Source: Methanobacteriota archaeon (GTDB taxonomy: Archaea > Halobacteriota > Methanosarcinia > Methanosarcinales > Methanosarcinaceae). Taken from it: DNA of 49,957 nucleotides. Below, piece after piece: positions 11,677-33,228 of the stretch (positions are counted from its first letter, which is position 1; every line of letters begins with the position of its first letter). Made by a program: the position numbers and the translations under genes. The stretch is from contig JAENYU010000014.1 of the NCBI GenBank assembly GCA_016841625.1, forward strand, positions 36,729 through 86,685, in the 5' to 3' direction. The notes beneath the pieces were generated by a model, which worked only from the letters and a program-made list of their open reading frames with translations, was not told the origin of the DNA and searched no databases.

Positions 11677-11692
11677 TCAAGGTTTTATGTAA
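11639..11692. repeat. inverted repeat at the edge of the IS21 remnant
   Basis: CATAAAACCT (near 11639) and AGGTTTTATG (near 11683) form a perfect 10-bp inverted repeat that brackets the truncated end of the istA-like fragment. It may be a terminal or junction sequence of an insertion element. Confidence 0.4.
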
Positions 11693-11985: not shown

Positions 11986-11993
11986 GATTTATG

Positions 11994-12015
11994 ATCCTTG
12001 AGCTTTCTCAAGGAT
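11994..12015. repeat. 9-bp hairpin between two IS remnants
   Basis: ATCCTTGAG / CTCAAGGAT with a 4-nt loop is a perfect stem between the start of the IS21 remnant and the truncated end of the ISH3-like gene. It could be an IS end or a terminator. Confidence 0.45.
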
Positions 12016-12031
12016 TGGAGATGGGGGAATT

Positions 12032-12627
12032 TTAACCCGGCCAAAAGGAGGAATTATTCACCGGCCTTGACATTTTAATGAGGGCGATAAAATGGGAAAG
12101 GTATTCAACTTTTGTTTTATCCTTTTCGACAGGAAGAACAGATAAGGTAAACCTTTCATTCTTGTTAATGATATAAAGGGAGACATACGAGTAAAAGGAG
12201 TTTGTTGACTTTTTAGCCTGCCCACCTATTACATATTTCTCGTTAGATGAATCTTTTTTCCCGTAATACGGATCATTGGTATAATCGACAGCGAATTCGT
12301 AACTTTTACCTGTTTTCAGGGTTTCTATTATTTCTTGAAGGAGAATATTTTCATTCGATTTGATCAGTTCATCCATTTTTAGTTTATAAGGTGGTATCGT
12401 AGGGATGTTTCACAAGCGACATTCTGATACTGTGCTGAGACTGAATGAACAGAATTCCTGTTAACTGCCATACTCACAGCAGTACGAAAAATGTCTTCAC
12501 TTGTAAGAGAACCATTGATCTTTATAGTTACATGGTCATTGAGAGGTCTTAATGCGGCATCAATACATTCTTTTGCCTTTAATTCAATTTTAGGACTATA
12601 TCCGGCCTTATGTGATGAATGAGACAT
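12032..12627 (-). pseudogene. ISH3-like DDE transposase, frameshifted and C-terminally truncated
   Basis: Two consecutive frames make one transposase. The first (12627-12379) ends with an N-terminal region containing VSMAVNRNSVHSVSAQY and ACETSLRYHL. The second (12376-12032) carries the first catalytic aspartate in FAVDYTNDPYYGKK. Loss of one A in the run near 12385 explains the break, because restoring it gives RYHLIKLKMDELIKSN. The second half of the DDE domain is missing and the frame ends near SFWPG. The 5' end (SPKIELKAKECID) and its ATATATA promoter match those in front of the ORF at 15251. The ISH3/IS4-like assignment rests on family resemblance and is moderately sure. Confidence 0.7.
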
Positions 12628-14784: not shown

Positions 14785-14915
14785 TTTAAGTTCCTCCTTT
14801 GTAGATTCTGCAAAAATATTAGAGGTTAAAATCCAAAAAATGAAGTGATAATTTCTCCAAATATCCTATAAGAATACAAACCTAATTTACACCCCACATT
14901 GACTCAGTTCCAAAA

Positions 14916-15005
14916 ACTAGTGTCGCGTCAACAACCATGTGTTGTATGATTACAAGTTATTGTGATTGATTATATACGACATTTTATGCTTGACTTGACA
15001 CTAGT
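14916..15005. mobile_element. MITE-like element with 16-bp terminal inverted repeats
   Basis: ACTAGTGTCGCGTCAA (14916-14931) is the reverse complement, with two mismatches, of TTGACTTGACACTAGT (14990-15005). The 90-bp unit is non-coding. The palindromic CTAG at each edge (14917-14920 and 15001-15004) could be a 4-bp target duplication, as in IS5-type insertions. The core would then be TGTC...GACA. Confidence 0.6.
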
Positions 15006-15018
15006 GATAAAAGTAAGT

Positions 15019-15067
15019 GTAATATCATTACATAAAATTTATAATTTTACTTGTGTAATGATGTTAC
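15019..15067. repeat. 49-bp imperfect palindrome
   Basis: GTAATATCATTACA (15019-15032) pairs with TGTAATGATGTTAC (15054-15067) at 13 of 14 positions. The AT-rich loop is partly self-complementary. It begins 14 bp after the MITE-like element. Confidence 0.55.
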
Positions 15068-15250
15068 GGCACAACAATGGTAACTATAGACCTAACTATT
15101 AATAATCTTTCTTAGCTACCTGTCTTCTTAGATCAAGGATCTCAAATTAGCTCTGAAAATCGATGTTCTAATTTCAGTACTTCGCTAATTTTCGTTTCCT
15201 CGTAAACATGGTTGCCCGAAAGCTATATATAGGATAAAAATGCCCCTCAT

Positions 15251-15526
15251 ATGTCTCTTTTATCATCTAAGCCCGTATATAGCTCTAAAATTGAATTAAA
15301 GGCAAAAAAGGACCTGAATTTTATCAAGCCTGAGTATGAAATTGAGAGGGTTGATTCCTATGAGATAAGGCACAAGATTCTCAATATTTCTTATGCCGAT
15401 TGGAAGAAGTTGGGGTTTTCAAAAGGAGCATTGCATTACATGAAGCAGAATGCAAAGTCAGATAAACCGTTTACCCTTAATGCTCATGTTCTGGAAAGGG
15501 TGAATAAGTGGGAAGAATTTATGTAA
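15251..15526 (+). pseudogene. chimeric ORF: transposase 5' end fused to a Cas1-like C-terminus
   Basis: This intact 91-aa frame has two parts. Residues 1-18 (MSLLSSKPVYSSKIELKA) and the promoter before them match the 5' end of the ISH3-like transposase remnant at 12627 (MSHSSHKAGYSPKIELKA). From about residue 22 the sequence is unrelated to it: SYEIRHKILNISYADWKKLG then FSKGALHYMKQNAKSDKPFT and a tail HVLERVNKWEEF. This second part is the same as the decayed copy at 12746-12841. I read it as a Cas1-like C-terminal tail captured behind a transposase promoter, and class it as a pseudogene fragment. It could still be expressed. Confidence 0.5.
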
Positions 15527-15627
15527 ACTACTTACATAGACACGTAGAGTAAATGTAAAAATTTAAGTAAGATATAATCAATTTGTAATGTGGTATTTTT
15601 TAAGTATCTTTTTATAGAAGTGATAAT

Positions 15628-16494
15628 GTGGCTTTATGGGATGCAGTAAAAAAGGGTGCACAAAAAATGGCAGAGGGTGCTGGTAAAGTATCCGATGAAA
15701 TACAACGGCGTGAAGAGCTAAAAGGAAATAAAACAAAAGCATTGCGGCGACTCACATTGAAGCAGCTTCAATATATGGCAAAAAATTATGGAATTAAAGT
15801 TACATCTCATGAATTTGTATTTGATGATGAACAAGCTCCCAAGTTAACCATAGATGATTATATAATTTCCATAAGATCTAACTTAAGTTATGAGGAAATA
15901 ATAAATTATCTCAAAAAACGAAAAGTTAATGTTTCGGATTTAATAAGTGACTCAAACCAAAATAATAACGCTATTGTATCTAGTAAATCCCAAACTAATA
16001 AACCCCACACAGAAATTTCAACCGAACTTTCTTCAGATGAAGAAATGTTAGATTCGGTGCTTAGCACAATATCACAAGAGTATGATAATTCCTTAAAAGT
16101 TATTGATGAATATGATTTCGAAAACCATCTTTATACTCTTTTAAATTTCACATACGGTAAAAATGGTTGGAATATCTATCGACAAGTAGAATGTGGAAAA
16201 TTTAATGAGAAAATTGATATTGTACTTGAAAATCATGCAACTAAGATAGCACTCGAATTGAAAATAGGTCGTACTAAGAATAAAATAAGAGATTCTTTAG
16301 GTCAACTACACTCATATGCTAAAGATTATCCAAATATTTCATTGGTAGTCTTAGACATAGGAAAAATAAGTCCTGAATTTTACGAGCTATTCAAACAAGA
16401 TTTAGACAACTTTGGAGTTTCTTTGTTAGTAATTAAAGGTAATCTTCGAAATAAGAGAAATAAAACAAAAACCGCAACTTTCAAATTTTCTTAA
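15628..16494 (+). CDS. PD-(D/E)XK nuclease-like protein
   Basis: This is a 288-aa protein starting at GTG. Residues 1-60 are basic and helical (ALRRLTLKQLQYMAKNYGIK), possibly a DNA-binding or SAP-like head. A polar linker follows at about 108-140. The C-terminal domain has the restriction-endonuclease fold pattern: E165 in FENHLYTLL, D197 in KIDIVL, E210-x-K212 in ALELKIG and Q226 in LGQLHSYAK. These are the expected metal and catalytic positions, all present. It lies 450 bp from the distal end of the CRISPR array in a region full of mobile DNA. A defence or restriction role is likely, but no partner methylase is present. Confidence 0.7.
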   Translation: MALWDAVKKGAQKMAEGAGKVSDEIQRREELKGNKTKALRRLTLKQLQYMAKNYGIKVTSHEFVFDDEQAPKLTIDDYIISIRSNLSYEEIINYLKKRKVNVSDLISDSNQNNNAIVSSKSQTNKPHTEISTELSSDEEMLDSVLSTISQEYDNSLKVIDEYDFENHLYTLLNFTYGKNGWNIYRQVECGKFNEKIDIVLENHATKIALELKIGRTKNKIRDSLGQLHSYAKDYPNISLVVLDIGKISPEFYELFKQDLDNFGVSLLVIKGNLRNKRNKTKTATFKFS

Positions 16495-16817
16495 CTTTTT
16501 TTATTGGATCAAAACCTACATTCTAACTTAAAGTATAGAGTTCCGTTTTTTCTTGTTAACTATATCCCCGAATAGGAGTTAGAGGGGATGAATTCGAACC
16601 CCTTCCACTAAAATGTCCCTTTTTTAGAAATACCTCTTGCATAAGTTTATTAAATAGAATAACCTATCTATATATGAGCCAGTTCTCAATTCATAAGCCA
16701 CACATACAACTCAAATACTCAAACTGGCTCGTATTCAACTTCTTACAATTACTTTCATCAACGCTCATTATTTTTACCCTTATTTTGAATTCTCGATAAA
16801 TCTAAAAAGGGAGGATT
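16495..16817. other. spacer between nuclease-like gene and the distal array end
   Basis: No gene was seen. GAGCCAGTT (16676-16684) and AACTGGCTC (16722-16730) form a perfect 9-bp inverted repeat. A T-loop-like TTCGAACCCC word near 16593 was checked for a tRNA, and none was found. Confidence 0.4.
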
Positions 16818-16934
16818 GTGATACAGATGCTTGAATATTGCCCCAAGTGCAAGAAGTATGTGCTTTCGACTCAGCATTTCGATGAAGTCTTCTATCGTGC
16901 GTTACATGTGTCCGTACTGCAACACTCGGTATAA
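16818..16934 (+). pseudogene. frameshifted zinc-ribbon remnant at the array edge
   Basis: After a GGGAGG site, GTG (16818) or ATG (16827) opens a frame with YCPKCKKYVLSTQHFDEVFY. One base further along, another frame reads YMCPYCNTRYNRHKIV, a second CxxC knuckle that runs directly into the first CRISPR repeat. Together the two halves look like a small zinc-ribbon protein with a one-base frameshift. The 3' end appears to have been cut by the array. Confidence 0.45.
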
Positions 16935-16947
16935 TCGGCACAAAATA

Positions 16948-19900
16948 GTTTCAATCCTTGTTTTAGTGGATTTTGCCCGTGGACAAATATTATAGTCCCG
17001 GCTCCGGTCCCGAGCAGCATGTTTCAATCCTTGTTTTAGTGGATTTTGCCCGTGGACTTGACGGAACTACTTGGAGCGTAGGCGCAGATCAATGTTTCAA
17101 TCCTTGTTTTAGTGGATTTTGCCCGTGGACTGTGTTTGAGGATTACTATTCAAGGACTGTAGGACCGTTTCAATCCTTGTTTTAGTGGATTTTGCCCGTG
17201 GACGGATGAACCGCAATCGGGACAGCATTTTTTATAATTTAGTTTCAATCCTTGTTTTAGTGGATTTTGCCCGTGGACCTGGAGTATCCGAGAGTACTTT
17301 TCTAAGGTGGCTCAAGTTTCAATCCTTGTTTTAGTGGATTTTGCCCGTGGACAAATTAGTTGTTTTTACAACTCATAAATTCATGATGTTTCAATCCTTG
17401 TTTTAGTGGATTTTGCCCGTGGACAGGGTACTTAGATAATATCAATAATGCCGATCTTGTGTTTCAATCCTTGTTTTAGTGGATTTTGCCCGTGGACCCA
17501 AAATAATAGAACGTCACAGAAAGGGGCACTTTTTGTTTCAATCCTTGTTTTAGTGGATTTTGCCCGTGGACTTTAAATCAAGAACCGATTCATTATATTC
17601 ATCCACACTGTTTCAATCCTTGTTTTAGTGGATTTTGCCCGTGGACCTCCAGAAACGGGGGATATATCAAGAGATTTCCCGTGTTTCAATCCTTGTTTTA
17701 GTGGATTTTGCCCGTGGACCACAATATCATTATACAAGAATTGAATTAATTGAATGTTTCAATCCTTGTTTTAGTGGATTTTGCCCGTGGACTGAGTCAA
17801 AGGGCATGAATACGTTAATAACTTCTCCTTGTTTCAATCCTTGTTTTAGTGGATTTTGCCCGTGGACACAATAAAATCCCGGCTTAATGAGTGGGGGTAT
17901 GTGTGTTTCAATCCTTGTTTTAGTGGATTTTGCCCGTGGACCAGGGACCGGAATCGAATGTTATGTCGATGGAGTATGTTTCAATCCTTGTTTTAGTGGA
18001 TTTTGCCCGTGGACTCTGCCTACGGGCACCGGGGGGAACCTCATGCCTAAAAGTTTCAATCCTTGTTTTAGTGGATTTTGCCCGTGGACGGATAAAATTA
18101 TTCCCTTGCACGATGTCAAAGGAAGTTTCAATCCTTGTTTTAGTGGATTTTGCCCGTGGACAGAAACCCGGCGAAAACTCCCAACCCACATACGCATAAG
18201 TTTCAATCCTTGTTTTAGTGGATTTTGCCCGTGGACTTTGCTTTCTCTTGTTGCATCCTGAACTTTTCCTGATGTTTCAATCCTTGTTTTAGTGGATTTT
18301 GCCCGTGGACTTTGGTTGACATGATCCCGCATTTCAAGGTCTGCAGTTTCAATCCTTGTTTTAGTGGATTTTGCCCGTGGACACCTCTGCATCCCGAAGT
18401 AATCCATGAATTCTTTTTGTTTCAATCCTTGTTTTAGTGGATTTTGCCCGTGGACTCATATTTCAACTCAGCGATAGACTGTTTTATTTTATGTTTCAAT
18501 CCTTGTTTTAGTGGATTTTGCCCGTGGACGAGATGGTTCATTCTCACAAGGGACATGTGCATTATAGTTTCAATCCTTGTTTTAGTGGATTTTGCCCGTG
18601 GACTCGAGGGCACAGTAAGGGACGCAAAAAAGAAAGGATAGTTTCAATCCTTGTTTTAGTGGATTTTGCCCGTGGACCAACTCAGTTTCGTAATCCTGGT
18701 ACATGATCCTAATGTTTCAATCCTTGTTTTAGTGGATTTTGCCCGTGGACTTTTTTGAGAATTTGAAAAACGAAGAAGCAATAGCTTTTATGTTTCAATC
18801 CTTGTTTTAGTGGATTTTGCCCGTGGACTGAATTTGGGGATAGAGGTTAGCTCGAACCCTTCTGAGTTTCAATCCTTGTTTTAGTGGATTTTGCCCGTGG
18901 ACCATTTTTCCGAAGATCAATTGGCATGAACTTTTATGTTTCAATCCTTGTTTTAGTGGATTTTGCCCGTGGACCTTTTGCTCCGGTGACGGCCAGGATA
19001 CCATACCAGAGTTTCAATCCTTGTTTTAGTGGATTTTGCCCGTGGACTTAAAATTATTTTCAGCTTCATGGTATCACCGGTGTTTCAATCCTTGTTTTAG
19101 TGGATTTTGCCCGTGGACTTACCTGGTAGCCAGCCCTGGAAGACTGAGAAGGCAGTTTCAATCCTTGTTTTAGTGGATTTTGCCCGTGGACTAACTGTAG
19201 CGTTTGGTCCTGTGGTATATGTATAAGTTTCAATCCTTGTTTTAGTGGATTTTGCCCGTGGACAAGCCCCTATCTGGATCACATAACCTTTTACTATGAG
19301 TTTCAATCCTTGTTTTAGTGGATTTTGCCCGTGGACATGACATTACCCGAAGCTCTCACAGTTCAGCAAATAAGTTTCAATCCTTGTTTTAGTGGATTTT
19401 GCCCGTGGACTATTGTATTGTAGGTAAATGTACCTACGGGAGATAGTTTCAATCCTTGTTTTAGTGGATTTTGCCCGTGGACTTGATGAAAAACGAAGGA
19501 GCCTTAAAACAGTTCCTGTTTCAATCCTTGTTTTAGTGGATTTTGCCCGTGGACCCGCGATATCCTCATTATGCCCGCCCATCTGGGTATGTTTCAATCC
19601 TTGTTTTAGTGGATTTTGCCCGTGGACGATGTCAAAATAAAGAAGGGGTTGATCTAAACGGGATCTAGTTTCAATCCTTGTTTTAGTGGATTTTGCCCGT
19701 GGACAAAGATATAGGTTACGGTGGTGTGATTTCAATATTTACTAAGTTTCAATCCTTGTTTTAGTGGATTTTGCCCGTGGACAAACGTGTGGAATAAGTG
19801 CTGAAATTATTGCTTTGGTGTTTCAATCCTTGTTTTAGTGGATTTTGCCCGTGGACTGGAAATATTCATCAACACCCCGTAATGTATTAAGTTTCAATCC

Positions 19901-20369
19901 TTGTTTTAGTGGATTTTGCCCGTGGACTTATATCAAGATCATGCACATATAAATAACTTGTAACGTTTCAATCCTTGTTTTAGTGGATTTTGCCCGTGGA
20001 CCCTTTTATAAGTGTAAACCCTAAAGCACAGACACCAATGTTTCAATCCTTGTTTTAGTGGATTTTGCCCGTGGACTGTAGGATAGTCATCTTTTCTATA
20101 CATTGCTATTAAGTTTCAATCCTTGTTTTAGTGGATTTTGCCCGTGGACTACATCACTATAAGGCCTAACTCTTATACGTTCTCTGTTTCAATCCTTGTT
20201 TTAGTGGATTTTGCCCGTGGACAGCGTCTACTATCAGGTTAGCGGTTTCCCTTGTTTTGTTTCAATCCTTGTTTTAGTGGATTTTGCCCGTGGACTCGTT
20301 ATATCTTTTCATTACATCAAGTCTATATTTAAGTTTCAATCCTTGTTTTAGTGGATTTTGCCCGTGGAC
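16948..20369 (-). repeat. leader-distal repeat block A, 47 copies
   Basis: All 47 repeats carry the 5' end GTCCACGGGCAAAATCC on the crRNA strand. By eye they are essentially identical. This is the older half of the array. Confidence 0.92.
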
Positions 20370-20406
20370 AGGCACTAAGGGACAACGGGGTTTATGATTT
20401 GTTTGA

Positions 20407-23400
20407 GTTTCAATCCTTGTTTTAGTGGATCTTGCTCGCGAATACAAATGACATCTTTTGTAGCCGTACCCGATGGATAGTTTCAATCCTTGTTTTAGTG
20501 GATCTTGCTCGCGAATTTTTTCATGTTTTACAGGTTTCAGGGGCAGGTAAAAAGTTTCAATCCTTGTTTTAGTGGATCTTGCTCGCGAATACGCCGACAG
20601 CGGGCGTTTACGAAGAAGAATTTTAGTTTCAATCCTTGTTTTAGTGGATCTTGCTCGCGAATAAGAAATGACAAGGAAAGAAAACATACTTAAAAAATGT
20701 TTCAATCCTTGTTTTAGTGGATCTTGCTCGCGAATACCGCGCTTACGACGATCCCGAGGACCGCGTCGGGTTTCAATCCTTGTTTTAGTGGATCTTGCTC
20801 GCGAATGAAAAGGTATACCACCGAGTCGGCCAGCTCTATGAGTTTCAATCCTTGTTTTAGTGGATCTTGCTCGCGAATCAAGCGCGATAAAATCAAGCGG
20901 GACACTCTCAACGACGTTTCAATCCTTGTTTTAGTGGATCTTGCTCGCGAATCAGGGTATCGAGGATATAAGGAGCCCCGATAAGGAGTTTCAATCCTTG
21001 TTTTAGTGGATCTTGCTCGCGAATGAACTGCACAAAAACGTTTATTTATCGAATTCCAAGTTTCAATCCTTGTTTTAGTGGATCTTGCTCGCGAATACTA
21101 AAACCACCGGACAGCTTAACAATACATACCTAGTTTCAATCCTTGTTTTAGTGGATCTTGCTCGCGAATCTTATTTGTTTGTGATTCCTATTTATTTGTT
21201 GTAGTTTCAATCCTTGTTTTAGTGGATCTTGCTCGCGAATTTTAATATCCTGTCACGGGCATAGCCCGCCAGGGCGTGTTTCAATCCTTGTTTTAGTGGA
21301 TCTTGCTCGCGAATATTCATCATCCGTTTGCGACATAAAAGATAATGTAAGTTTCAATCCTTGTTTTAGTGGATCTTGCTCGCGAATCGGACTTTCCAGC
21401 GCTGGCTTGAAAAGGAATAACTTTGTTTCAATCCTTGTTTTAGTGGATCTTGCTCGCGAATCCCCCGGATATCGGAGCGTGTGTAGAGATAACATTGTTT
21501 CAATCCTTGTTTTAGTGGATCTTGCTCGCGAATTCGTGGTTAATGTGCCATTGGGTTACGTCCATAATGGTTTCAATCCTTGTTTTAGTGGATCTTGCTC
21601 GCGAATGGTTATGGTTTCTTGATATATATTATTGGTATAATGTTTCAATCCTTGTTTTAGTGGATCTTGCTCGCGAATCCTCTTTGGAAAATCCTTTCTT
21701 TTCCATTTTTTGAGTTTCAATCCTTGTTTTAGTGGATCTTGCTCGCGAATTCCGTCGCCTTGTCTTTCTCGTATTCGGAAACCTCAGTTTCAATCCTTGT
21801 TTTAGTGGATCTTGCTCGCGAATTTTTTTAACTTCATTAATTAATAATTGTTAACTGTAGTTTCAATCCTTGTTTTAGTGGATCTTGCTCGCGAATCCCA
21901 CTTCCCGGCATCGTTTTTAACATTCATTTACAGTTTCAATCCTTGTTTTAGTGGATCTTGCTCGCGAATATGAGACATTATTTAATTCGATGTGGTAATA
22001 ATGGTAGTTTCAATCCTTGTTTTAGTGGATCTTGCTCGCGAATGAACCGCTATGAAGAAAATACCATTGACCGCCCGGAGTTTCAATCCTTGTTTTAGTG
22101 GATCTTGCTCGCGAATTTTTTCAAAGAATGACATAGAAGGCACTGTATAGGGTTTCAATCCTTGTTTTAGTGGATCTTGCTCGCGAATATAGGTTTCGAC
22201 CATTGAAACACTTGCCAATTTTCGTGTTTCAATCCTTGTTTTAGTGGATCTTGCTCGCGAATCGGATGCGTTTGGGGCTTCCTCCCCCCAAATTACAGTG
22301 TTTCAATCCTTGTTTTAGTGGATCTTGCTCGCGAATACCTTTTTGAGAATGGTCTATGGAGGTATATAATAAGTTTCAATCCTTGTTTTAGTGGATCTTG
22401 CTCGCGAATGCGAGAAGATCAGGGTAATTAGTGGGACCTACCAGGGTTTCAATCCTTGTTTTAGTGGATCTTGCTCGCGAATGGTAAATATGAAAGTGGA
22501 TTATAATATCAGGTGGGTAGTTTCAATCCTTGTTTTAGTGGATCTTGCTCGCGAATATTTAATTATGAGATGAACCACCACTATATCATATTGTTTCAAT
22601 CCTTGTTTTAGTGGATCTTGCTCGCGAATCTCTTTTATACACTCATAATATATATTATTCGTAGTTTCAATCCTTGTTTTAGTGGATCTTGCTCGCGAAT
22701 TTTTATACCCCCGGTGTAGTGGTCGTTCAGTTCAGTTTCAATCCTTGTTTTAGTGGATCTTGCTCGCGAATTGATTTGTCCCCATGTGCGCATATTGTGC
22801 GAAATTCGTTTCAATCCTTGTTTTAGTGGATCTTGCTCGCGAATGACCGCCGAGCCTGTGAAGGAGCCCGGTAAAAAGTTTCAATCCTTGTTTTAGTGGA
22901 TCTTGCTCGCGAATTGACAGGACCGCCCCCGTATGAGGTCCATATTTTTTGTTTCAATCCTTGTTTTAGTGGATCTTGCTCGCGAATAGTGGATTACGAA
23001 AAACGAGTAAGAAGAGTGTAATAAAGTTTCAATCCTTGTTTTAGTGGATCTTGCTCGCGAATTATGAAACCGCTCGACTTGATAGCATATCCAATAAGGT
23101 TTCAATCCTTGTTTTAGTGGATCTTGCTCGCGAATTGCAAGAGTGGGGGATGTTGAGAGCATGAACTTTTTGTTTCAATCCTTGTTTTAGTGGATCTTGC
23201 TCGCGAATCCTGGGCAAAAATCCCCGAGTCCATGCTCCCGGAGGGTTTCAATCCTTGTTTTAGTGGATCTTGCTCGCGAATTAGACAGGCTAGACAGGCT
23301 ATTACCCCCTTTGTAGGTTTCAATCCTTGTTTTAGTGGATCTTGCTCGCGAATAAAAAATGCGGTTGCAGGGATCATAACAAAGCGGGTTTCAATCCTTG

Positions 23401-23570
23401 TTTTAGTGGATCTTGCTCGCGAATGATGATTATTAAAAATACACAAAACTGAGGAGTGAGTTTCAATCCTTGTTTTAGTGGATCTTGCTCGCGAATCGTT
23501 TATTGCTCATTGTTTTTAATACCGGGGTGTGGGGTTTCAATCCTTGTTTTAGTGGATCTTGCTCGCGAAT
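20407..23570 (-). repeat. leader-proximal repeat block B, 44 copies
   Basis: All 44 repeats carry the 5' end ATTCGCGAGCAAGATCC. This differs from block A at positions 1, 3, 5, 8 and 13 of the repeat, and all five are transitions. The other 32 positions, including the ATCC/GGAT pair and the ATTGAAAC handle, are unchanged. No chimeric repeat lies at the junction (20370-20406 is an ordinary spacer). Confidence 0.92.
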
Positions 23571-23682
23571 AGGGCAAAATTTTCCAGCGTTTGGCCAGAA
23601 AAGGCCTGAAATGAGCCCTTTTTCGGGGCTAAAATTCTTGCTGGAAAATTATCAAACCCTTTATAAATACAAGAAAAACATC
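23571..23682 (-). promoter_or_regulatory. CRISPR leader and array promoter
   Basis: The 112 bp between the cas4 stop and the first repeat holds a TATA box TTTATAAA (23660-23667, minus strand). This places a transcription start near 23635. An 11-bp perfect inverted repeat, AATTTTCCAGC (23578-23588) / GCTGGAAAATT (23640-23650), spans the leader. It may bind integration or architectural proteins. A small AGCCC/GGGCT hairpin lies between the arms. Confidence 0.75.
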
Positions 23683-24390
23683 TCATACGCAGATATTCCG
23701 GTAACAGCAATCTACGCATTTTCTAGAAGATCTGGTTGTCTTGGGATATAAGCCTTTTTGAATGATATCGATAATTTCCTCGATTATTTTTTCAGCTTTT
23801 TTGAAATCAGAGGCACCGATCCCCATTTCTTTGACCAAGCTGTTACTGCGAGTAAAACAAAGGTATCCACGATTTACTTCAATATTGTAATTTTCACGAA
23901 TCAAAAGTGCCTGTAAGACCAGCTGGAATTTATAGGTTTTAAAAATCTTGTCTTTATACTCGGCAAATTTATATTCAAGAGGTGCAGCAGTTCCGTCTTC
24001 AAGAAACAGCACCTCATCAACTATTCCTTTTATATGGTGCTGTTTTGAAGCAATGAAGACTTCACTCTCCTTCCTTTCGCAGTTCAGTTTTTTCCTTACA
24101 TAATCCCTGTTTGTGAGTTTCCTTGTTTCATGGACCTCACGGCCTTTGATAACCTTAAACCTTTTTTCTTCATGCTGTGGGATATCGAGGCAATATATAT
24201 AGTAGGTAAAGCGGGGGCAGAACAGGTATTCAAGAACATCTGAAATCCGTATTATTGTTCCTGAATCATTATCAGAATCGGGCTCAATGGCTGCGTCTCC
24301 CTCATCTTCGAGATCTATTTCAATGTCGGTATCTTTTTCAACGCCTGTTTCAGCCCGTTCCTCATTCATCGAAAACTCAGAACTCGTCAT
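23683..24390 (-). CDS. cas4: Cas4, RecB-like nuclease with Fe-S cluster
   Basis: Cas4 trims prespacers and helps choose PAM and orientation during adaptation. The 235-aa protein has an unusual acidic N-terminal extension of about 45 residues (DTDIEIDLEDEGDAAIEPDS). The core follows: C58 in LFCPR, H87, D125 in GIVDEVL, E139-x-K141 in LEYKF, and Q157 in KFQLVLQ. The C-terminal cysteines are C225, C228 and C234 in KCVDCCYRNIC, and with C58 they would bind a 4Fe-4S cluster. A start at M8 is possible. It is the last gene of the cas operon, 15 bp after cas2, with the leader directly downstream. Confidence 0.93.
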   Translation of the reverse strand: MTSSEFSMNEERAETGVEKDTDIEIDLEDEGDAAIEPDSDNDSGTIIRISDVLEYLFCPRFTYYIYCLDIPQHEEKRFKVIKGREVHETRKLTNRDYVRKKLNCERKESEVFIASKQHHIKGIVDEVLFLEDGTAAPLEYKFAEYKDKIFKTYKFQLVLQALLIRENYNIEVNRGYLCFTRSNSLVKEMGIGASDFKKAEKIIEEIIDIIQKGLYPKTTRSSRKCVDCCYRNICV

Positions 24391-24405
24391 ATGAACCTCA
24401 AAAAC

Positions 24406-24750
<345 letters not shown>

Positions 24751-24789
24751 TTACATTATTAGCTTCACGAACTTATCGCGTTAAAATTT

Positions 24790-25761
24790 TTATTTCCCTA
24801 TCAGGCTGTTTGCAATCCTGTGACAGTCGAACTGGATCGTGTTTCCAATTTTTATATTCCTGCCGCGGTAAGTTATATCTTTATCAAAGGTTTCATTGAC
24901 AGCCTGGATAAGGACGGATTTTCCTTCCTTATTGAGAGTCATACCGTTTGGGATCTCATCAAAAAAACTCTCTGAGACCTGCTTTTTTGAGAAAAGGTTG
25001 AAAACTGTCCTGTCAATGTGGATGCGATACATCTCAATCAGGTCAAACACAAAGGACTTTTTGTTATAGTCATCTGTGTGATTAAAACCCACATAAGGAT
25101 CAAGCCCGGCTATAATACACGCCTTTTCAACCCTAGAATACAAAACCCCATATCCGTAATTCAAAAGGCAGTTGAACTCGTCCTTTGCAGGGCTCCGGCT
25201 TCTGCCTGAAAACTTCCATTTATCAGGCAGAAGAAAACTTAAAGCTCCGAAGTAATTGCGCGATGCCATTCCCTCAAGGCCCATGATTTTTCCCCGCATT
25301 TCATCAAGTTTCCCCTCAAGAACTTCAAGCTGGGCTTTCATATATTCCATTCCGGAGATATAATCATCAAGTTCGTCCTTCTGGTCAGGCCGATTCTTTT
25401 TGAGGTCTTTCAAAAAAAGGATCTGGCCATCGACCTTCTGCTCAATCCAGCTTTTTGCAAGCCTGAATCCTTCCGGCTCTTCCGAAATTTCAAGCTGCCT
25501 TCTTCTTATGTATGTCGTGCTCCCGAGTTTAGAGTGCCAGACTCTGCCATAAGGGTTCCCGAAGTGATCCAGAAAAACGATATCGATATTGTTTTCTACC
25601 GCAAACTTGATAGCATCGGTAGTTATGGTTGCAGAAGTCGTAATCAGGATGCTGTCCACTTTCTTTTCTGAGACTTCGAAGACCTTATCGTCAACTTTTA
25701 CAAGAAAACAGTTGTTCTGCTTTTTTAGAAATGAGCCGTGGGTGTTGATTACAAGCTGCAT
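24790..25761 (-). CDS. cas1: Cas1 integrase
   Basis: This is the catalytic subunit of spacer integration. The 323-aa protein has an N-terminal beta domain (1-75, ending DHFGNPYGRVW) and a helical catalytic domain. The metal ligands are E163 in GLEGMASRNYFGAL, H228 in VGFNHTDDYNKKSF and D240/E243 in FDLIEMYR, all intact. Its start overlaps the end of cas6 by 13 bp, which implies translational coupling. Length and motifs fit type I-B Cas1. Confidence 0.96.
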   Translation of the reverse strand: MQLVINTHGSFLKKQNNCFLVKVDDKVFEVSEKKVDSILITTSATITTDAIKFAVENNIDIVFLDHFGNPYGRVWHSKLGSTTYIRRRQLEISEEPEGFRLAKSWIEQKVDGQILFLKDLKKNRPDQKDELDDYISGMEYMKAQLEVLEGKLDEMRGKIMGLEGMASRNYFGALSFLLPDKWKFSGRSRSPAKDEFNCLLNYGYGVLYSRVEKACIIAGLDPYVGFNHTDDYNKKSFVFDLIEMYRIHIDRTVFNLFSKKQVSESFFDEIPNGMTLNKEGKSVLIQAVNETFDKDITYRGRNIKIGNTIQFDCHRIANSLIGK

Positions 25762-26408
25762 CTTTTCACCGTGCCAAAACCGCGAGATACGGATTTTCCA
25801 AGGCCGAAGTAGTCCGGAATGAGGAAATTTACCATGAATTCCCCTTTGAAAGTGGCAATCTCCATCCCTTTCATTCTACCAGAGCCGGGATGCAAATTTG
25901 TCTCGCATTTGATTTGCCCCGGAACAGTGTAGCCAAGGGACTTGGACATTGAAAGAATGTTTCCGACAAGAGTTTTTCGGAGCAGTTCTTTTTGTTCGGA
26001 GAGATCCATCTTTTTGTATCTATCAGTGAAATTTTCCTGGTTGAGGGCAAACCAGGGAGTTTCGAAGCTGTAGGTGTGGAATTTGTCGAAAAGGCCGAAC
26101 TCCTGTTCTTTAAAAGATACTTTTTTTTCCAGTATTTCATATGTGGATTCTTCTAGCTTGATTTTGTCATATTTAGTGTAAATTTCCTGAAGGACTTCTA
26201 CACCCTCATTTATTCCGAGAACCATAGGAATGCCGTTCAAAATTTTATATTGGACTAAAGGATACATGTAAATAACTTTATCACAGTTATGTTGATGCAA
26301 AAGTACATATTCATTAAACCGAGTCGCGAAAAACCCTCGAAGTTTTGAGGCGTTTGGTCCTACTTTTCGATCAGGGACAAGAGTTAAAGTTAGCGTTTTA
26401 ACTTTCAT
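25749..26408 (-). CDS. cas6: Cas6 crRNA-processing endoribonuclease
   Basis: Cas6 cleaves the array transcript inside each repeat, leaving the ATTGAAAC handle. From the ATG at 26408 the protein has 219 aa. The N-terminal ferredoxin fold begins MKVKTLTLTLVPDRKVGP. The C-terminal glycine-rich loop GLGKSVSRGFGTV, needed for RNA contact, is intact. A GTG at 26417 would add three residues and overlap the cas3 stop. The family's catalytic histidine is variable; H42 and H44 (HQHN) are candidates. Confidence 0.92.
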   Translation of the reverse strand: MKVKTLTLTLVPDRKVGPNASKLRGFFATRFNEYVLLHQHNCDKVIYMYPLVQYKILNGIPMVLGINEGVEVLQEIYTKYDKIKLEESTYEILEKKVSFKEQEFGLFDKFHTYSFETPWFALNQENFTDRYKKMDLSEQKELLRKTLVGNILSMSKSLGYTVPGQIKCETNLHPGSGRMKGMEIATFKGEFMVNFLIPDYFGLGKSVSRGFGTVKRCSL

Positions 26409-26409
26409 G

Positions 26410-28851
26410 TTAATCACACATCATGCTGGGCTTTAATTCAAAGACAAAACCAGTTTCAGGATCATAATAATGTTCTATTTGTTCAAAAGGAATATATCCA
26501 ATATTGAGGTCCTCTGGCTCTTCGCAGGAAAAGTCTTTTTTAGATACGGAAATTATATATTCATTGAATTTTTTTCTGATCGCCAGAAATCTCTCTTTTC
26601 TTTCAAGGGGATTTTTAAGAGATTTTATTAAGATGTATTCTTTCCAGATTTCAACCGCCTCGTCGTCCATTTCAACAAATACGTCTATTTTTTCGTATCC
26701 TGCTTTATCGTCTATTAGCCTGAAATCGGATGTAAGGGCTTTGAATTTAAGCTCGTTTACGTATGATAGTAGCTCCTTTGATTCATCTTCACTTGAAGTA
26801 TCTTTAACTTTCCTGAAGTAGTTGTTATTTAAAAAAAGCAAGTCTGCCTCATAAATTTCAGACGGGGATTCTTCCAATACCTCTTTTGTTTTGTCGATAA
26901 GAAAACTCGAATATATATATCGATGAAACTCTTTCCTTTCATCTTTCAGAACCACAATATTTACTTGTCCTCGATAACTTTTGGAAGAATTCCTGTTGCA
27001 TCGTCCTGATACCTGATTTATTGAATCAATAGTAGCAAAATCCCTGTAGACAATATCTACGTCTATATCCACTCCGGCTTCTATAAGCTGAGTACTAACG
27101 ATAATTTTTCTTTTTTCCGACTTTTCTTTAATTTCTTTAATTTTATTAAGTCTCACTTTTGGGACAATGTTGGTAGAAAGATAATAATAACTGGTATTTT
27201 CAAGTCTCAGGTCATTTAAATGCTTAAATATAGATAAAGAAGACTTAATGGTATTCAATGCAAATAAGAAATCCTTTTCGGGATTTTCTTTAACTTTTGA
27301 TTCAATTATTTCCTTAAACTCATTAAGATTCATTGGATTCAGGTTTATTTCCAGCTTAACTCGATCAAATTCCCTGAAATACTTATCTTTATTATTAACC
27401 AGCTCGATAATTTCCTTTTTTTCGGGATCGAAAATAAGCGGTTGAGTTGCTGTCACAAAAATGAAATACGTATTAAAATATTCCGCAAAACCCGAAATGA
27501 GCTGTTTTAACAATAACCAGTACTTATGAGGGATTGACTGGACTTCATCAAGTATTACAATCGAATTTGCAATGGTGTGAAATTTCCTGAGTGAGCGATT
27601 TTTATTAGATACAATTGTGTGGAAAAACTGGACAAAAGTGGTAACGATTATTTCAGAGTTCCATCCCTCAATTAAAAATAGACTTTTAAGCCCTTCAAAT
27701 TCTTCTTCATCTTGCGTTTTGTAAAAAATATCTGCAAGATGATGATGTTTAAGTAGCATGTCTTCTGTAGGGTTAGCCCTTTCAACTGTTTTAAAAACGT
27801 CTTCAAAAACATCATAGTTCTGGTCTATTATGCTCAGAAAAGGTAGTGAATAAATAATTTTTGCCTTAATTCTTTTTTCCTCTTTTAATCTTGCTTTCAA
27901 TTTTAATGCAAATGAAAGAGATGTGAGAGTTTTCCCTGAACCTGTAGGAACGCTTATTGAATACATTTTGTTATCAAGGTCAAGCTTCTCAATACTTTCA
28001 GTGACTTCCTTGTAGATCTCATTACGTACCTTATTGATTGTACTTTCATTACTCTGGAAACCCTTCTCTACCTTATACTTATCCACAAGTTCAGATGAAA
28101 TATCGATTTCACTGAAAACATCAATGGAAGAAGCATCGATCTTATCAGAGTTTATAAGGATTGAATACAGAATCAATGTGATTAGATAATAGCCTGTAAA
28201 CTGCTCTTCCCTGAGCAATTTTACGAATTTTCTTCGATTTTTTAAAATCTCGCCAGCAATGGAACGATATTCATTACAGAAAGTGTCAATGTCAAAAGAA
28301 ATATCATAACCATCTAGTAATTGCTCATAGACTGTTTTCAACTCGCTTATTTCGAGCGATTTTATTTGAAGATCGATAACTTCGAGGGTATCTTCATTTA
28401 CCAATTCTCGAATTTCATCTTCAGCATCTTTTAAGTTCCCATGATGCCGTTTTACAATAAGATATCCTATGGTGGGAATAAATCTCAGACTGTTGTCATT
28501 ATTTAGTGAGTTTACATATTTTTCTAATATATAGTAGGTAAAAATAGCTGAAATAAAGCCATGATGATATTCTTTTTTATTTTTTAAGCCCCTTTGTATG
28601 GCAGGATCTGTCTCAAAAAGATACCTTTGAAAGTACTTCGTGCCTTTCCCAAAATCATGACAGGTCCCTATAAGAAATGCTATTTTGGAAAAGGTATTTT
28701 CATCGATCCCAAACTTTTCTAGAGATAAGATTTTCTCCCTACTGGTCGAGATAGATTTGTTTCCTACATTGGATAAGTGTCTAAATAGTATTTTATCGGG
28801 ATGGGAATGAAGATGGAAATCACATGAAGACAATTCCTTCTCCATTCTCAA
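26410..28851 (-). CDS. cas3: Cas3 nuclease-helicase
   Basis: Cas3 is recruited by Cascade to unwind and degrade target DNA. This is an 813-aa single-chain HD nuclease plus SF2 helicase. HD-domain residues are H65-D66 in CHDFGKG, H96-H97 in EYHHGF and H136-H137 in KRHHGNL. Helicase motifs are PTGSGKT (302-308), the DEVQ box (435-438), TATQP (motif III), STQLIEAGVDIDVD (motif V) and QVSGRCNRN (motif VI). All key residues are present. The start overlaps the end of cas5 by 32 bp. Confidence 0.96.
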   Translation of the reverse strand: MRMEKELSSCDFHLHSHPDKILFRHLSNVGNKSISTSREKILSLEKFGIDENTFSKIAFLIGTCHDFGKGTKYFQRYLFETDPAIQRGLKNKKEYHHGFISAIFTYYILEKYVNSLNNDNSLRFIPTIGYLIVKRHHGNLKDAEDEIRELVNEDTLEVIDLQIKSLEISELKTVYEQLLDGYDISFDIDTFCNEYRSIAGEILKNRRKFVKLLREEQFTGYYLITLILYSILINSDKIDASSIDVFSEIDISSELVDKYKVEKGFQSNESTINKVRNEIYKEVTESIEKLDLDNKMYSISVPTGSGKTLTSLSFALKLKARLKEEKRIKAKIIYSLPFLSIIDQNYDVFEDVFKTVERANPTEDMLLKHHHLADIFYKTQDEEEFEGLKSLFLIEGWNSEIIVTTFVQFFHTIVSNKNRSLRKFHTIANSIVILDEVQSIPHKYWLLLKQLISGFAEYFNTYFIFVTATQPLIFDPEKKEIIELVNNKDKYFREFDRVKLEINLNPMNLNEFKEIIESKVKENPEKDFLFALNTIKSSLSIFKHLNDLRLENTSYYYLSTNIVPKVRLNKIKEIKEKSEKRKIIVSTQLIEAGVDIDVDIVYRDFATIDSINQVSGRCNRNSSKSYRGQVNIVVLKDERKEFHRYIYSSFLIDKTKEVLEESPSEIYEADLLFLNNNYFRKVKDTSSEDESKELLSYVNELKFKALTSDFRLIDDKAGYEKIDVFVEMDDEAVEIWKEYILIKSLKNPLERKERFLAIRKKFNEYIISVSKKDFSCEEPEDLNIGYIPFEQIEHYYDPETGFVFELKPSMMCD

Positions 28852-29521
28852 GCCTCCAGAGATTATTTACATTCGCAACAATACTTTGTCCATTTTTTTC
28901 AAACAAAACTTTGCCGTATTCTGTAACTTCTCTATCGAGAAGCATTTCTATAGGAATAGTCTCTGAAAAATATTCTTTTCCTTCTTCAAAATTGATTTTT
29001 AGGAGCTTTTTTTCGGGGATTACAGAATGAATTTCCCTCTCCGAATCTGAGATTTCACTGACAGCCTCCATTTCCCCTATGAATTCATAATTGGCAATGT
29101 GTTCACTCAGACCGAGGCACAGAGTATACACCGACTTGTGTTCTTTTAACATAGAATAAAGTTTATTATATACTTCTTCCGAGGAATGAGAAAAATAAAT
29201 CCTGTATTTTACATCTTTTAATACCTCGAATCTGATCTGGGTTCTGGTCTTTATTCTGCTCATCATAGGAGCAATTTTGGTGTCGATCAAATTCTCTGCA
29301 ATTCTGGTCTTTTTGATAGGACAGCATATTTTTACTGCAATGTTTGCATCTTCTTTAGAGAAATAATTCAGGTATTCATCCTTTCCAAGCCCTTCTATTG
29401 CACCAATCATTCCAGCAATAGCTGTTCGAGGAGGAATGGAATACGTAAGGGGAGAAGTTGTAGTATAGTGTTTTCGGAAATGCCCAAATTCTCCCCATAC
29501 ATCGAAAACTAATACTTTCAT
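28820..29521 (-). CDS. cas5: Cas5 (type I-B Cascade subunit)
   Basis: Cas5 caps the 5' handle of the crRNA in Cascade. The 233-aa protein begins with the RAMP strand MKVLVFDVWGEFGHFRKHYT. The glycine-rich loop SIPPRTAIAGMIGAIEGLG is typical of Cas5h. It starts 9 bp after the cas7 stop and shares an operon with cas7 and cas3. Confidence 0.92.
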   Translation of the reverse strand: MKVLVFDVWGEFGHFRKHYTTTSPLTYSIPPRTAIAGMIGAIEGLGKDEYLNYFSKEDANIAVKICCPIKKTRIAENLIDTKIAPMMSRIKTRTQIRFEVLKDVKYRIYFSHSSEEVYNKLYSMLKEHKSVYTLCLGLSEHIANYEFIGEMEAVSEISDSEREIHSVIPEKKLLKINFEEGKEYFSETIPIEMLLDREVTEYGKVLFEKNGQSIVANVNNLWRLENGEGIVFM

Positions 29522-29530: not shown

Positions 29531-30541
29531 TCACATTGATAATTGTTCAGTGCCGATCCCTGCTTCATTAAGACACTTCTCGATGTCTGTCTCTTCTCCA
29601 CCATATATGAATACAAGAGACCCGTCCAGACATAACTGGATATTTTCGATCTTGTCTTTGTTTTTAGCCAGTATTTCAACCAGCCTCTGAACTTCAATCT
29701 TCACCTGCGAGATGTCCCTAATTTCTTCATCAATCAGATCAGATTTTAGAGTGAAAAGGTTGTTCAGGTCTCCAATGTGATAATTTCCCTCTTTGTAGTT
29801 TACTTTCAACAAGAGACGGGGAACCTGTCCTACTTTTGACCTGGAAATCAGATTCTTAGTTCCATTCCACATTCCATCAAGAAGCAGATCTACATCTTCC
29901 TCAGAAAGTTTTGTATCCTTTGCCGCATTTTCATTGATAATTCCGTAAAAACTTATCAAAGAATAAGGCAAGAAATCTTCTTCTCGGAAGGTTTTCTGGC
30001 TGGCTCCTTCCTTGGACGCAAATGCTCCGGTTCCCCTAAAATGTTTCATGAACACTTTGTGCATTGATCTTCCAATCTTAAACTGTACAGGACCAGTGTG
30101 GGTTATTGAACCTGTTTTATCTTTCTCTTTTTCTTTTTCTTTTTCTTTCTCTTTTTTGTTTTGGACTTTAAGTTCAAGAGGCACAGTGCAACCAAAAAGA
30201 CGAACGTCGATACATTTATTTAAAATATTTTCATCGATGTTCTTTTTCCCTGTTTCAAAAGCATCGAGAGGCTCTTTAGTCGTTAAAAAATCTCTAGCTC
30301 TCAGTTTTGCATTTTGGATGTCTCCCCTCTCATCTGAAATTTCTCTCACAAAAATTTCTTCATTTCTAAACTTATTGAGATAATCCCTAATGGTTCTCTT
30401 GAGTCTAACATCTGTTACGAGGTTTATCCCTGTCTCTTCATCAATCCTTGGTTTGTTTTCATCAAGTGGGTCTCCATTTGGATTCCCATCTTTCAGATCA
30501 TACAAAAATATAATTTCAGACCTTCTGCATACTTCAGTCAT
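29531..30541 (-). CDS. cas7: Cas7 (Csh2-type Cascade backbone)
   Basis: Cas7 polymerises along the crRNA spacer. The 336-aa protein starts with EIIFLYDLKDGNPNGDPLDE, a hallmark of Csh2. ARDFL and DVRLFGCTVP follow, and GPVQFKIGRSMHKV lies after an internal lysine/glutamate run at about 129-142 (KKEKEKEKEKEKDK). That run is encoded by a hexanucleotide microsatellite and would form a surface loop. The ATG overlaps the cas8b stop by 8 bp (ATGACTGA). Confidence 0.95.
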   Translation of the reverse strand: MTEVCRRSEIIFLYDLKDGNPNGDPLDENKPRIDEETGINLVTDVRLKRTIRDYLNKFRNEEIFVREISDERGDIQNAKLRARDFLTTKEPLDAFETGKKNIDENILNKCIDVRLFGCTVPLELKVQNKKEKEKEKEKEKDKTGSITHTGPVQFKIGRSMHKVFMKHFRGTGAFASKEGASQKTFREEDFLPYSLISFYGIINENAAKDTKLSEEDVDLLLDGMWNGTKNLISRSKVGQVPRLLLKVNYKEGNYHIGDLNNLFTLKSDLIDEEIRDISQVKIEVQRLVEILAKNKDKIENIQLCLDGSLVFIYGGEETDIEKCLNEAGIGTEQLSM

Positions 30542-32402
30542 TTTTTACCTCCTTCTCAGATTTAGGTGGTTTTAAAAGATTTGATATATTCATACCTAAA
30601 ACAAAATAAAAACTGATTTCATCGTTTGGCATTTTCCAATCAGTGTCTGATTGAATCATATATTTAGAGATCAGATTTTCGAGTTCTTTATAATAATTTG
30701 AATCATACTCTTCTAGTTTATTTATGATTTCAGGGAAGATCCTTTTCACATAACGCTCATCAAGATTCAGGCCTCGAAGTTTTGTTCTGAAAGGAGTGCT
30801 TCCACGCTGGCGTTTTTGAATATTTAGTAGATACTGGACCAGTGTACCTTCTAAAAAAATAGCCTTCTTTGCGTCAGTATTGAAAAAGGATTCAAATTCC
30901 GAAAAGATAACATTTGTCCGTTCCTCGTAACCACTGTTTTCCTTTGGTGCTATATCACCTAATAAAACCGATAAATTCTTAGAATTCACACATTTACCTC
31001 CATTATAATTCCCAAGCAAATGCAGCTGACTTAAGAAATCTAACATTTGGAACCCTTGAAATAGTGAATACCTAATGGGATTTTCCTTCCTGAAATCTTT
31101 TCTAATACGCTGCATTATATACTTTAATAAAAAATTGTAATCAATTGATGTTCCCGTAAATATCCCATTCGCAACTTCTAAAAAATATTTGTTTGTATCA
31201 GGGTCATCTGGAGTATTCGGGAAAAAACACCTTACATTACCTAATGTGAATTGAATTGATTTTGTTTCAGTATCATTAGAGAAATAGTTACTGAATATTT
31301 TTCTCTTGTCAACTATTCCTTTGGATTTGAAAAGTTCTCTTAGCCTTGAAGGTCGAACACCCTCTATATACAAAAGAATTCGATATGAAGAATTGGATTT
31401 TTCATAAAATTGAAAATTAAAATTAAGATAATCGTTCGTTTCACTTAGAATTTCAAGGATATCGTTTTCATTAGCCTGTAAGAAATTTTCATATTCCTTA
31501 TTAAAAGCAAATTTTTTCTCATTGAAATTCTCAAAAACATCGTAAATATCTTCATTCACACTCTTATTAAGTAACTTGGGGATAAGGAGAAAATTGAATC
31601 CATAAAAACCAAAAGACATGTATTTCTCAATATATTCTTTTCCCACTTTGATTTTCAAGGCGCATTCAAGGCAAATGGGATTGTTTCTCCATGCCTTACT
31701 TTGGTCAAACCCCCCGCTAACAAACCCCCGTTTATCTACGGTATAAAATTCATAAGGTGTAACGAAACCATAAACTTCTTTATGTGTTTTGCAAACCGAA
31801 CATACTTTATCATCATCTCTAGAGACAATATCATATTTGCTGTAAAATTTAGAAGCCCCATTATTTTTAAGGATTTTTCGAAATACCTCAAAATCTCCGA
31901 CATATCTGATGAAGCCATTTTCTTCAAGAACTAAGGTCAATATCGATTTTTCCTTTGCATCTATTGAGTTTACTTTAGGTTCAATCTCCGAAAGAATTAT
32001 CTCTTCATTTTCTTTTATACACTTTCCAAGAAGCTCCAAAAATTGTACTTCTTCGCCGTCCAATACGGGCTTTGCTTCTTTCAAAGGCTTTGAGAACCAA
32101 CCTATGACCTTGTTAGAAAAAGTTTTTTTGATTTCTGTGACTCTTGCAGTAGGAGTGATGTCTGGACCATTAGATGATCCTCTCTTGTAGAGATATTTTG
32201 CAATTTTCTCTTTTGAATACTCCTGATGCTCAATTCCTTTAAACTCGAAATTTCCATGACTATAAGTTAGCTTGATACAGAATACATGCTTATAAGATTC
32301 ATTACTTGCAGGATTTTCAACTAAAATTGATACAAAATCGTTTAAAGCCTTATTTTCTTTTTTGAGCGCATACTCACCAATTTCTTTCATCGCTTCGATC
32401 AC
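30534..32402 (-). CDS. cas8b: Cas8b (Csh1-type Cascade large subunit)
   Basis: This is the large subunit that recognises the PAM and recruits Cas3. The 622-aa protein has a zinc-binding pair of CxxC motifs: C201/C204 in KVCSVCKTH and C244/C247 in PICLECALK, as in Csh1. The remainder is weakly conserved, as is usual in the family. The start is GTG at 32402 with GAGGGTG upstream; an ATG lies four codons in (32390). It is the first gene of the eight-gene cas operon, and a 223-bp divergent promoter region separates it from the Csa3-like regulator. Confidence 0.9.
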   Translation of the reverse strand: MIEAMKEIGEYALKKENKALNDFVSILVENPASNESYKHVFCIKLTYSHGNFEFKGIEHQEYSKEKIAKYLYKRGSSNGPDITPTARVTEIKKTFSNKVIGWFSKPLKEAKPVLDGEEVQFLELLGKCIKENEEIILSEIEPKVNSIDAKEKSILTLVLEENGFIRYVGDFEVFRKILKNNGASKFYSKYDIVSRDDDKVCSVCKTHKEVYGFVTPYEFYTVDKRGFVSGGFDQSKAWRNNPICLECALKIKVGKEYIEKYMSFGFYGFNFLLIPKLLNKSVNEDIYDVFENFNEKKFAFNKEYENFLQANENDILEILSETNDYLNFNFQFYEKSNSSYRILLYIEGVRPSRLRELFKSKGIVDKRKIFSNYFSNDTETKSIQFTLGNVRCFFPNTPDDPDTNKYFLEVANGIFTGTSIDYNFLLKYIMQRIRKDFRKENPIRYSLFQGFQMLDFLSQLHLLGNYNGGKCVNSKNLSVLLGDIAPKENSGYEERTNVIFSEFESFFNTDAKKAIFLEGTLVQYLLNIQKRQRGSTPFRTKLRGLNLDERYVKRIFPEIINKLEEYDSNYYKELENLISKYMIQSDTDWKMPNDEISFYFVLGMNISNLLKPPKSEKEVKND

Positions 32403-32625: not shown

Positions 32626-33228
32626 ATGCCAAAACTCACACTTATCTCCACAATCTACGCTCTTGAACCTGTAATTATTTGTGTGACCCGGCTTTCCCCT
32701 TCGAAGATTATAATGCTGTCAGAGGAAGGGGCGGGTGAAAAGAAGTTGCTGTCCGAGGAAATGATTGAGAAGACCTTTAAAAACGCACTTGAAGTTGAGA
32801 AAAAGTATACTGCGGTCTACGACACAGTGCGGGTTGCAAAAGATGTTGCCGAACTGATTGAAAAGGAACACGACAGAGGCAACCAGGTCATTGTCAATGT
32901 TTCGGGTGGGCGGAAGCCGCAGGCTTTTGGGGCACTTTTCGGGGCATATGCCAGGAACGATATGGTACAGAGAATTGTATATGTGACCGAAGAAGACAGT
33001 TTAATGATTGACTTTCCGGTGCTGAGCTTCAACCTCTCGGAAACAAAGAAACTGATACTTGAAGAGATCCAGAAAGGGGTTTCTGCAGTCTCTCAGATTG
33101 CAATAACTGCTGGAATTTCTAAAGGGATGACTTACAACCACCTAAGGGAGCTAAAATCTATGGGATACATCGCTGACGGAGAAAAAGGGTATGAAGTCAC
33201 GGATGCAGGCAAAATCGCTGCTATTTGA
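32626..33228 (+). CDS. csa3: Csa3-like CARF-domain transcription regulator
   Basis: This 200-aa regulator has an N-terminal CARF domain (about 1-125) and a C-terminal winged helix (about 130-200). The CARF pocket motif NVSGGRKPQAFGALFG is clear, and such pockets bind cyclic oligoadenylate or similar nucleotides. The wHTH reads SQIAITAGISKGMTYNHLRE then a wing with DGEKGYEVTDAGK. It is transcribed divergently from the cas operon, the normal position of Csa3, so it probably controls cas or adaptation genes. The transcript appears leaderless. Confidence 0.9.
   Translation: MPKLTLISTIYALEPVIICVTRLSPSKIIMLSEEGAGEKKLLSEEMIEKTFKNALEVEKKYTAVYDTVRVAKDVAELIEKEHDRGNQVIVNVSGGRKPQAFGALFGAYARNDMVQRIVYVTEEDSLMIDFPVLSFNLSETKKLILEEIQKGVSAVSQIAITAGISKGMTYNHLRELKSMGYIADGEKGYEVTDAGKIAAI

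What the first reader, a model, noticed from the sequence alone, without database searches (positions are those of the whole stretch)
16948..23570. One CRISPR array built from two repeat types with a clean switch
Seen directly: 47 leader-distal repeats have one 5' third and 44 leader-proximal repeats another, with five transitions confined to the first 13 of 37 bp and no intermediate or chimeric repeat at the junction near 20370-20406. Known: new repeats copy the leader-proximal one, so stepwise mutation should leave graded intermediates. Inference: either two related arrays fused by recombination through the shared 24-bp 3' part, or one conversion event replaced the first repeat. Both halves keep the ATTGAAAC handle and so may share one Cas6, but their crRNA 3' ends would differ.
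Basis: partly seen in the sequence, partly recalled or inferred. Interest (0 to 1): 0.72.

Follow-up and report, generated by a model that had tools for sequence, protein, structure and literature searches.

The report
CRISPR array taken over by newcomer module
This methanogen's long virus-memory array is built from two slightly different repeat types because its spacer-adding machinery was swapped, by recombination, for that of a neighbouring Methanosarcina lineage; the array records the event, but mixed arrays and swapped machinery are already known separately.

Summary
There are 91 repeats: 44 identical leader-proximal copies (type P) and 47 identical leader-distal copies (type D). They differ by five transitions at repeat positions 1, 3, 5, 8 and 13, with no intermediate and one switch inside 20370-20430. 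The array belongs to a complete type I-B locus (23571-33228). The switch is best read as one edge of a horizontal replacement. From the leader through cas4, cas2, cas1 and the 3' part of cas6, the DNA is 93-96% identical to a Methanosarcina locus whose array carries exactly the P repeat, and only 61-81% identical to a genus-mate (G001) with D-like repeats. Part of cas7 and cas8 shows the reverse (98-99% G001). The cas1 tree nests the window among exact-P loci and rejects grouping with the genus-mate (AU p=0.0003). Across 24 loci the repeat tracks Cas1, not the effector. No G001-type leader or second intact Cas1 survives, which argues against a misjoin of two arrays. Mixed-repeat arrays (Pyrobaculum, 2012) and exchangeable adaptation modules are published, and similar composite arrays occur in relatives. 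It is a clear new example of a known kind. The D block's original machinery and the targets of both blocks remain unidentified.

The parts
16948..20369 (-). D block: 47 identical D repeats with 46 spacers (leader-distal, older half)
20370..20406 (-). junction spacer between the last P repeat and the first D repeat
20370..20430 (.). interval in which the repeat type switches: junction spacer plus the shared 24-bp 3' core of the last P repeat (20407-20430); inferred crossover site
   Evidence: diagnostic positions; crossover inferred
20407..23570 (-). P block: 44 identical P repeats with 43 spacers (leader-proximal, younger half)
23571..23682 (-). leader, 95-99% identical to leaders of Methanosarcina P arrays, 61% to the G001 D'-type leader
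23683..24390 (-). cas4b
24406..24696 (-). cas2b
24790..25761 (-). cas1b, nested among exact-P Methanosarcina loci
25749..26417 (-). cas6b; its 3' part (to about 25970) is P-type, the rest similar to both candidate parents
26410..28851 (-). cas3b
28820..29521 (-). cas5b
29531..30541 (-). cas7b; strongest parentage change at 29807-29936
30534..32402 (-). cas8b; 98-99% identical to G001 up to about 31819
32626..33228 (+). CARF-wHTH regulator (CasR-like), divergently oriented

Best explanation
This is a type I-B CRISPR-Cas locus whose adaptation end was replaced by homologous recombination. A resident locus with D-type repeats received a segment from a Methanosarcina-type locus carrying the P leader, cas4-cas2-cas1 and a P-type array or at least its first repeat. 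One crossover fell within 20370-20430, most simply in the 24 bp shared by the two repeat types (20407-20430), which leaves no visible chimera. The other fell in the cas operon, between about 25970 and 29936. The imported Cas1-Cas2-Cas4 and leader then copied the P repeat at every acquisition, while the older D block was kept downstream. One leader transcript and one Cas6b are expected to serve both blocks, because the 8-nt handle and the 5-bp stem are common to both. Shown: block structure, mosaic identities, cas1 phylogeny, leader and repeat association. Inferred: crossover positions, order of events, and that the D block is still expressed.
For: Informative sites over leader-cas4-cas2-cas1-3'cas6 (23571-25970): 465 match only P-type G097 against 55 only G001; over 29807-31819 it is 8 against 81. 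Maximum chi-square breakpoint at 29807-29936, chi2 212 against a maximum of 24 in 500 permutations. Leader 99/96/95% to G094/G097/G081, whose adjacent arrays are exactly P, and 61% to the G001 leader. The cas1 tree puts the window with the three exact-P loci (100/100) and rejects clade {G000,G001}, AU p=0.0003, while mcr identity to G001 (87.9%) is not lower than to G081, G094, G097 and G076 (86.1-87.6%). Repeat distance tracks Cas1 (Mantel r=0.75; 0.74 given Cas3) and not Cas3 (-0.07 given Cas1). The same cas1-2-4 module sits beside very different effectors (G094: cas6 43%, cas3 37%). D-family repeats are resident in the genus: G001 arrays and relics on own contig C31.
Against: The D repeat is not identical to the G001 repeat (3 differences), and the D-block spacers (no C at base 1 in 46; mean 36.6 nt) differ from G001's as well as from the P block's, so the D block's own adaptation machinery has not been found. 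From 25971 to 29806 the locus is 91-98% identical to both candidates (117 against 58 informative sites), so the operon crossover is poorly placed and more than one exchange is likely. No spacer is shared with a candidate donor.
Confidence: 0.77

Rival explanations
1. Only the first repeat was converted (from another array or by template switching) under an unchanged leader and cas1, and later acquisitions copied the new repeat.
For: Explains a clean switch with no chimera. Copying a leader-proximal repeat from another array was proposed for Pyrobaculum mixed arrays (PMC3396285).
Against: Leader, cas4, cas2, cas1 and the 3' part of cas6 share the foreign, P-type affinity, and repeats track Cas1 across the family.
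Confidence: 0.1
2. Stepwise point mutation of the first repeat, with the intermediates later lost by deletions between repeats.
For: Single-step variants and intermediates occur in relatives (L102, L101, L096, L099), and deletions between repeats are known in archaeal arrays (PMC4390879).
Against: Five changes and no intermediate in 91 otherwise perfect repeats; it does not explain the foreign leader and cas genes.
Confidence: 0.05
3. Assembly artefact: two separate arrays joined through the shared 24 bp.
For: The genome is a 63-contig draft and reads could not be inspected.
Against: The join would have to be made inside 24 bp or a unique spacer, well inside a 105-kb contig. No second D array, no G001-type leader and no second intact Cas1 is left over, as two separate arrays would require. 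Similar block switches occur in other assemblies, two of them single-contig genomes (G001, G081).
Confidence: 0.05

Closest known systems
Mixed direct-repeat arrays in Pyrobaculum (P. oguniense crispr1, P. neutrophilum crispr5; PMC3396285)
   Same: One array with clustered blocks of two repeat families; in P. oguniense they differ in the 5' motif and keep the crRNA handle. Homologous recombination or copying from another array was proposed.
   Different: Those arrays are short (8+5 repeats; 11+4+3). Here 44+47 repeats, and donor-type and resident-type loci and the linked cas1/leader change can be identified.
Exchangeable adaptation modules of archaeal CRISPR-Cas systems (reviewed in PMC4390879; an E. 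coli I-E exchange is cited there)
   Same: Cas1, repeat and leader evolve together and are exchanged independently of the interference genes.
   Different: Here the array itself keeps the before and after states side by side.
Methanosarcina mazei Go1 type I-B system (PMC7465815)
   Same: Related organism with a I-B locus and a CARF-wHTH regulator that binds the CRISPR leader.
   Different: No two-block array is described in the passages read.

Membership tests
CRISPR-Cas type I-B | Cas8b, Cas7b, Cas5b, Cas3, Cas6b effector set | tested here: met
CRISPR-Cas type I-B | Cas1, Cas2, Cas4 adaptation genes next to a leader and array | tested here: met
CRISPR-Cas type I-B | repeat ending in an 8-nt ATTGAAA(C/G) handle | tested here: met
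   all 91 repeats end in ATTGAAAC
CRISPR-Cas type I-B | crRNA production and DNA interference | not testable with these tools
   no RNA or phenotype data
Mixed direct-repeat array (Pyrobaculum kind) | two repeat families clustered in blocks within one array | tested here: met
Mixed direct-repeat array (Pyrobaculum kind) | each repeat family also exists in an unmixed array elsewhere | tested here: inconclusive
   exact P in unmixed arrays (L057, L063, L069); D only as the D' (GTCCGTGAG) arrays of G001 and as one decayed repeat with the exact D 5' third in G096
Adaptation-module exchange | cas1 history discordant with neighbouring effector genes and with the organism | tested here: met
Adaptation-module exchange | repeat and leader co-vary with Cas1 rather than with the effector | tested here: met

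The most novel reading that the evidence does not exclude
Methanosarcinaceae arrays are repeatedly captured by incoming leader-Cas1 modules that cross over in the conserved 3' core of the repeat, the part Cas6 also needs, so that old immunity is inherited and transcribed by the newcomer. Repeat blocks would then be a readable log of module turnover, and the D block, with its nearly A/T-only first spacer base, would preserve the acquisition rule of a machinery that no longer exists in the genome.
Probability: 0.25. Interest if true: 0.6.

Novelty: new member of a known kind. Interest (0 to 1): 0.4.

Why it matters
It gives a naturally recorded case of adaptation-module replacement in which array, leader and cas1 can be placed in order. 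It predicts that one Cas6 and one leader serve crRNAs from two repeat types, so it can be used to test how far the repeat 5' third matters for acquisition (read by Cas1) compared with processing (read by Cas6). It also suggests that the conserved 3' core of the repeat makes old immune memory portable between modules.

Tried and rejected
Protospacers: no convincing match of the array in phages or plasmids and none in IMG/VR for five spacer patterns and one repeat-core pattern, so targets and PAMs are unknown. Spacer sharing with relatives: only a 27-nt opposite-strand match between D spacer 19411-19445 and a G001 array spacer, plus weak matches that look like chance. Spacer statistics as proof of two machineries: D is an outlier (A/T at base 1 in 44/46 against 62-79% in the other arrays; longer than P, p=0.006), but the best change-point for base 1 is after spacer 8, not at the junction, and G001's D'-type arrays do not share the bias, so it is kept as suggestive only. 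Distal flank: 14600-16947 has no orthologous neighbourhood, so the missing degenerate end could not be explained. The second Cas1 hit on C54 is a broken fragment with no array in the 2.5 kb read. Literature searches gave no closer precedent than PMC3396285; two cited papers were not held.

Full report
What is there. Reading the minus strand (the crRNA strand), the region 16948-23570 is one uninterrupted array of 91 repeats of 37 bp with 90 unique spacers of 33-41 nt. The 44 repeats nearest the leader are all ATTCGCGAGCAAGATCCACTAAAACAAGGATTGAAAC (P); the 47 distal ones are all GTCCACGGGCAAAATCCACTAAAACAAGGATTGAAAC (D). The five differences are transitions at positions 1, 3, 5, 8 and 13. No repeat is intermediate. 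The most distal repeat is intact, which is unusual for the old end of an array (general knowledge).

The locus. To the right lie the leader (23571-23682) and a complete type I-B set on the minus strand: cas4b, cas2b, cas1b, cas6b, cas3b, cas5b, cas7b and cas8b, then a divergent CARF-wHTH regulator. Both repeat types keep the ATTGAAAC handle and are predicted to form the same weak 5-bp stem; position 13 changes a closing A-U into G-U, so pairing is kept. It is therefore reasonable, though not shown, that one Cas6b processes both blocks.

Relatives. The exact P repeat is common in Methanosarcina arrays. The exact D repeat was in none of the loci returned by a scan of one genome for each of 84,980 species, although records very near the window's own genome may be left out there. 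Its nearest relative is GTCCGTGAGCAAAATCC in G001, a genus-mate with long arrays of this type; a decayed repeat with the exact D 5' third survives in G096. G001 has a homologous I-B locus: the effector proteins are 90-96% identical to the window's, but Cas1 is 82%, Cas2 88% and Cas4 76%.

The mosaic. DNA identity along the locus shows that 23571-25970 (leader, cas4, cas2, cas1, 3' cas6) is 93-96% identical to G097, whose array is P, and 61-81% to G001. Site patterns are 465 to 55 in favour of P. From 25971 to 29806 the locus is similar to both (117 to 58). From 29807 to 31819 (cas7/cas8) it is 98-99% identical to G001 (8 to 81). The strongest breakpoint is at 29807-29936. For comparison, the mcr region is 88% identical to G001 and 86-90% to the g13 genomes compared. 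The cas1 tree places the window with G097, G081 and G094, the loci with the exact P repeat, with full support, and rejects a clade with G001 (AU p=0.0003).

Repeat follows Cas1. Across 24 loci the repeat distance correlates with Cas1 distance (r=0.75), and this persists when Cas3 is held constant (0.74); the converse vanishes (-0.07). The window leader is found in 25 g13 genomes and, within G001, only in front of its ATTCTTGAG array. The G001 D'-type leader is found in front of the two GTCCGTGAG arrays (with a weaker, 76% match at the ATTCTTGAG array) and is absent from the window's genome. The D block thus has no recognisable leader of that type and no second intact Cas1 in this genome.

Mechanism. 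The simplest account is replacement of the adaptation end by homologous recombination, with one crossover inside 20370-20430 (most simply the shared 24-bp repeat core) and the other in the operon. Because the core is identical in both types, such a crossover leaves no chimeric repeat, which explains the clean switch. How many P spacers came with the donor and how many were acquired afterwards cannot be told; none is shared with the loci examined.

Precedents. Similar block switches exist in the family: G081 (about 17 GTTGAAAAACAGCTTCCAGC-type repeats followed at normal spacing by 25 P), G001 (ATTCTTGAG x46, then ATTCGTGAG/ATTCGTTAG, then three GTCGAGAAGTAGCTTCC-type repeats) and strain DH2 (ATTCGAGAG then ATCCGCGAG). 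In the literature, clustered mixing of repeat families, one case with different 5' motifs, was reported in Pyrobaculum (PMC3396285), and modular exchange of adaptation genes with co-evolving Cas1, leader and repeat is reviewed for Sulfolobales (PMC4390879). The finding is therefore a large, well-resolved new example, not a new kind.

Open points. D-block spacers begin with A or T in 44 of 46 cases and average 36.6 nt, unlike the P block (32/43, 35.7 nt); on the first base they also stand apart from nearly all other arrays measured. This hints at a different acquisition machinery, but it does not match G001 and the change-point analysis is not clean. Targets are unknown. The distal flank has no orthologous neighbourhood, while the relic region that follows the G001 array lies on another contig here (C31), so the array's old end was probably rearranged.

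Noticed in passing
own contig C31 17497-17840, 22179-22520, 24797-25120 (L031/L032); also L096 4845-5300, L099 11286-12619: Dispersed mini-arrays: a conserved ~300-bp leader-like sequence of a third type followed by 1-3 D'-like repeats, present in three species of the genus.
   Followed up: partly
own contig C31 19188-19296 and 20701-20808: Relic repeat pairs at normal CRISPR spacing (34-35 bp) in which a P-like and a D-like decayed repeat are neighbours, suggesting that repeat types were mixed here before.
   Followed up: partly
L148 (G081) 15349-18431; L094 (G001) minus strand 244-4241; L101 (DH2/G094) 8346-12401: Other composite arrays with block switches between repeat types at normal spacing.
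   Followed up: partly
own contig C31 3400-9258 and 10599-16457: Two 1952-aa ORFs of equal length, each followed by a 239-aa ORF, lie among the relic CRISPR repeats; function not examined.
   Followed up: no
window 16948-16984: The most leader-distal repeat is perfect and abuts sequence without an orthologous neighbourhood, so the old end of the array was probably cut by a rearrangement.
   Followed up: partly
G000:C54:14351-14806 (L036): Broken solitary cas1-like fragment with a stop codon.
   Followed up: no
L063 (JAQVBK010000143.1): Contig binned as Candidatus Cloacimonadota carries a Methanosarcina-type I-B cas locus and P array (88-97% identical Cas proteins), probably a binning error.
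   Followed up: no
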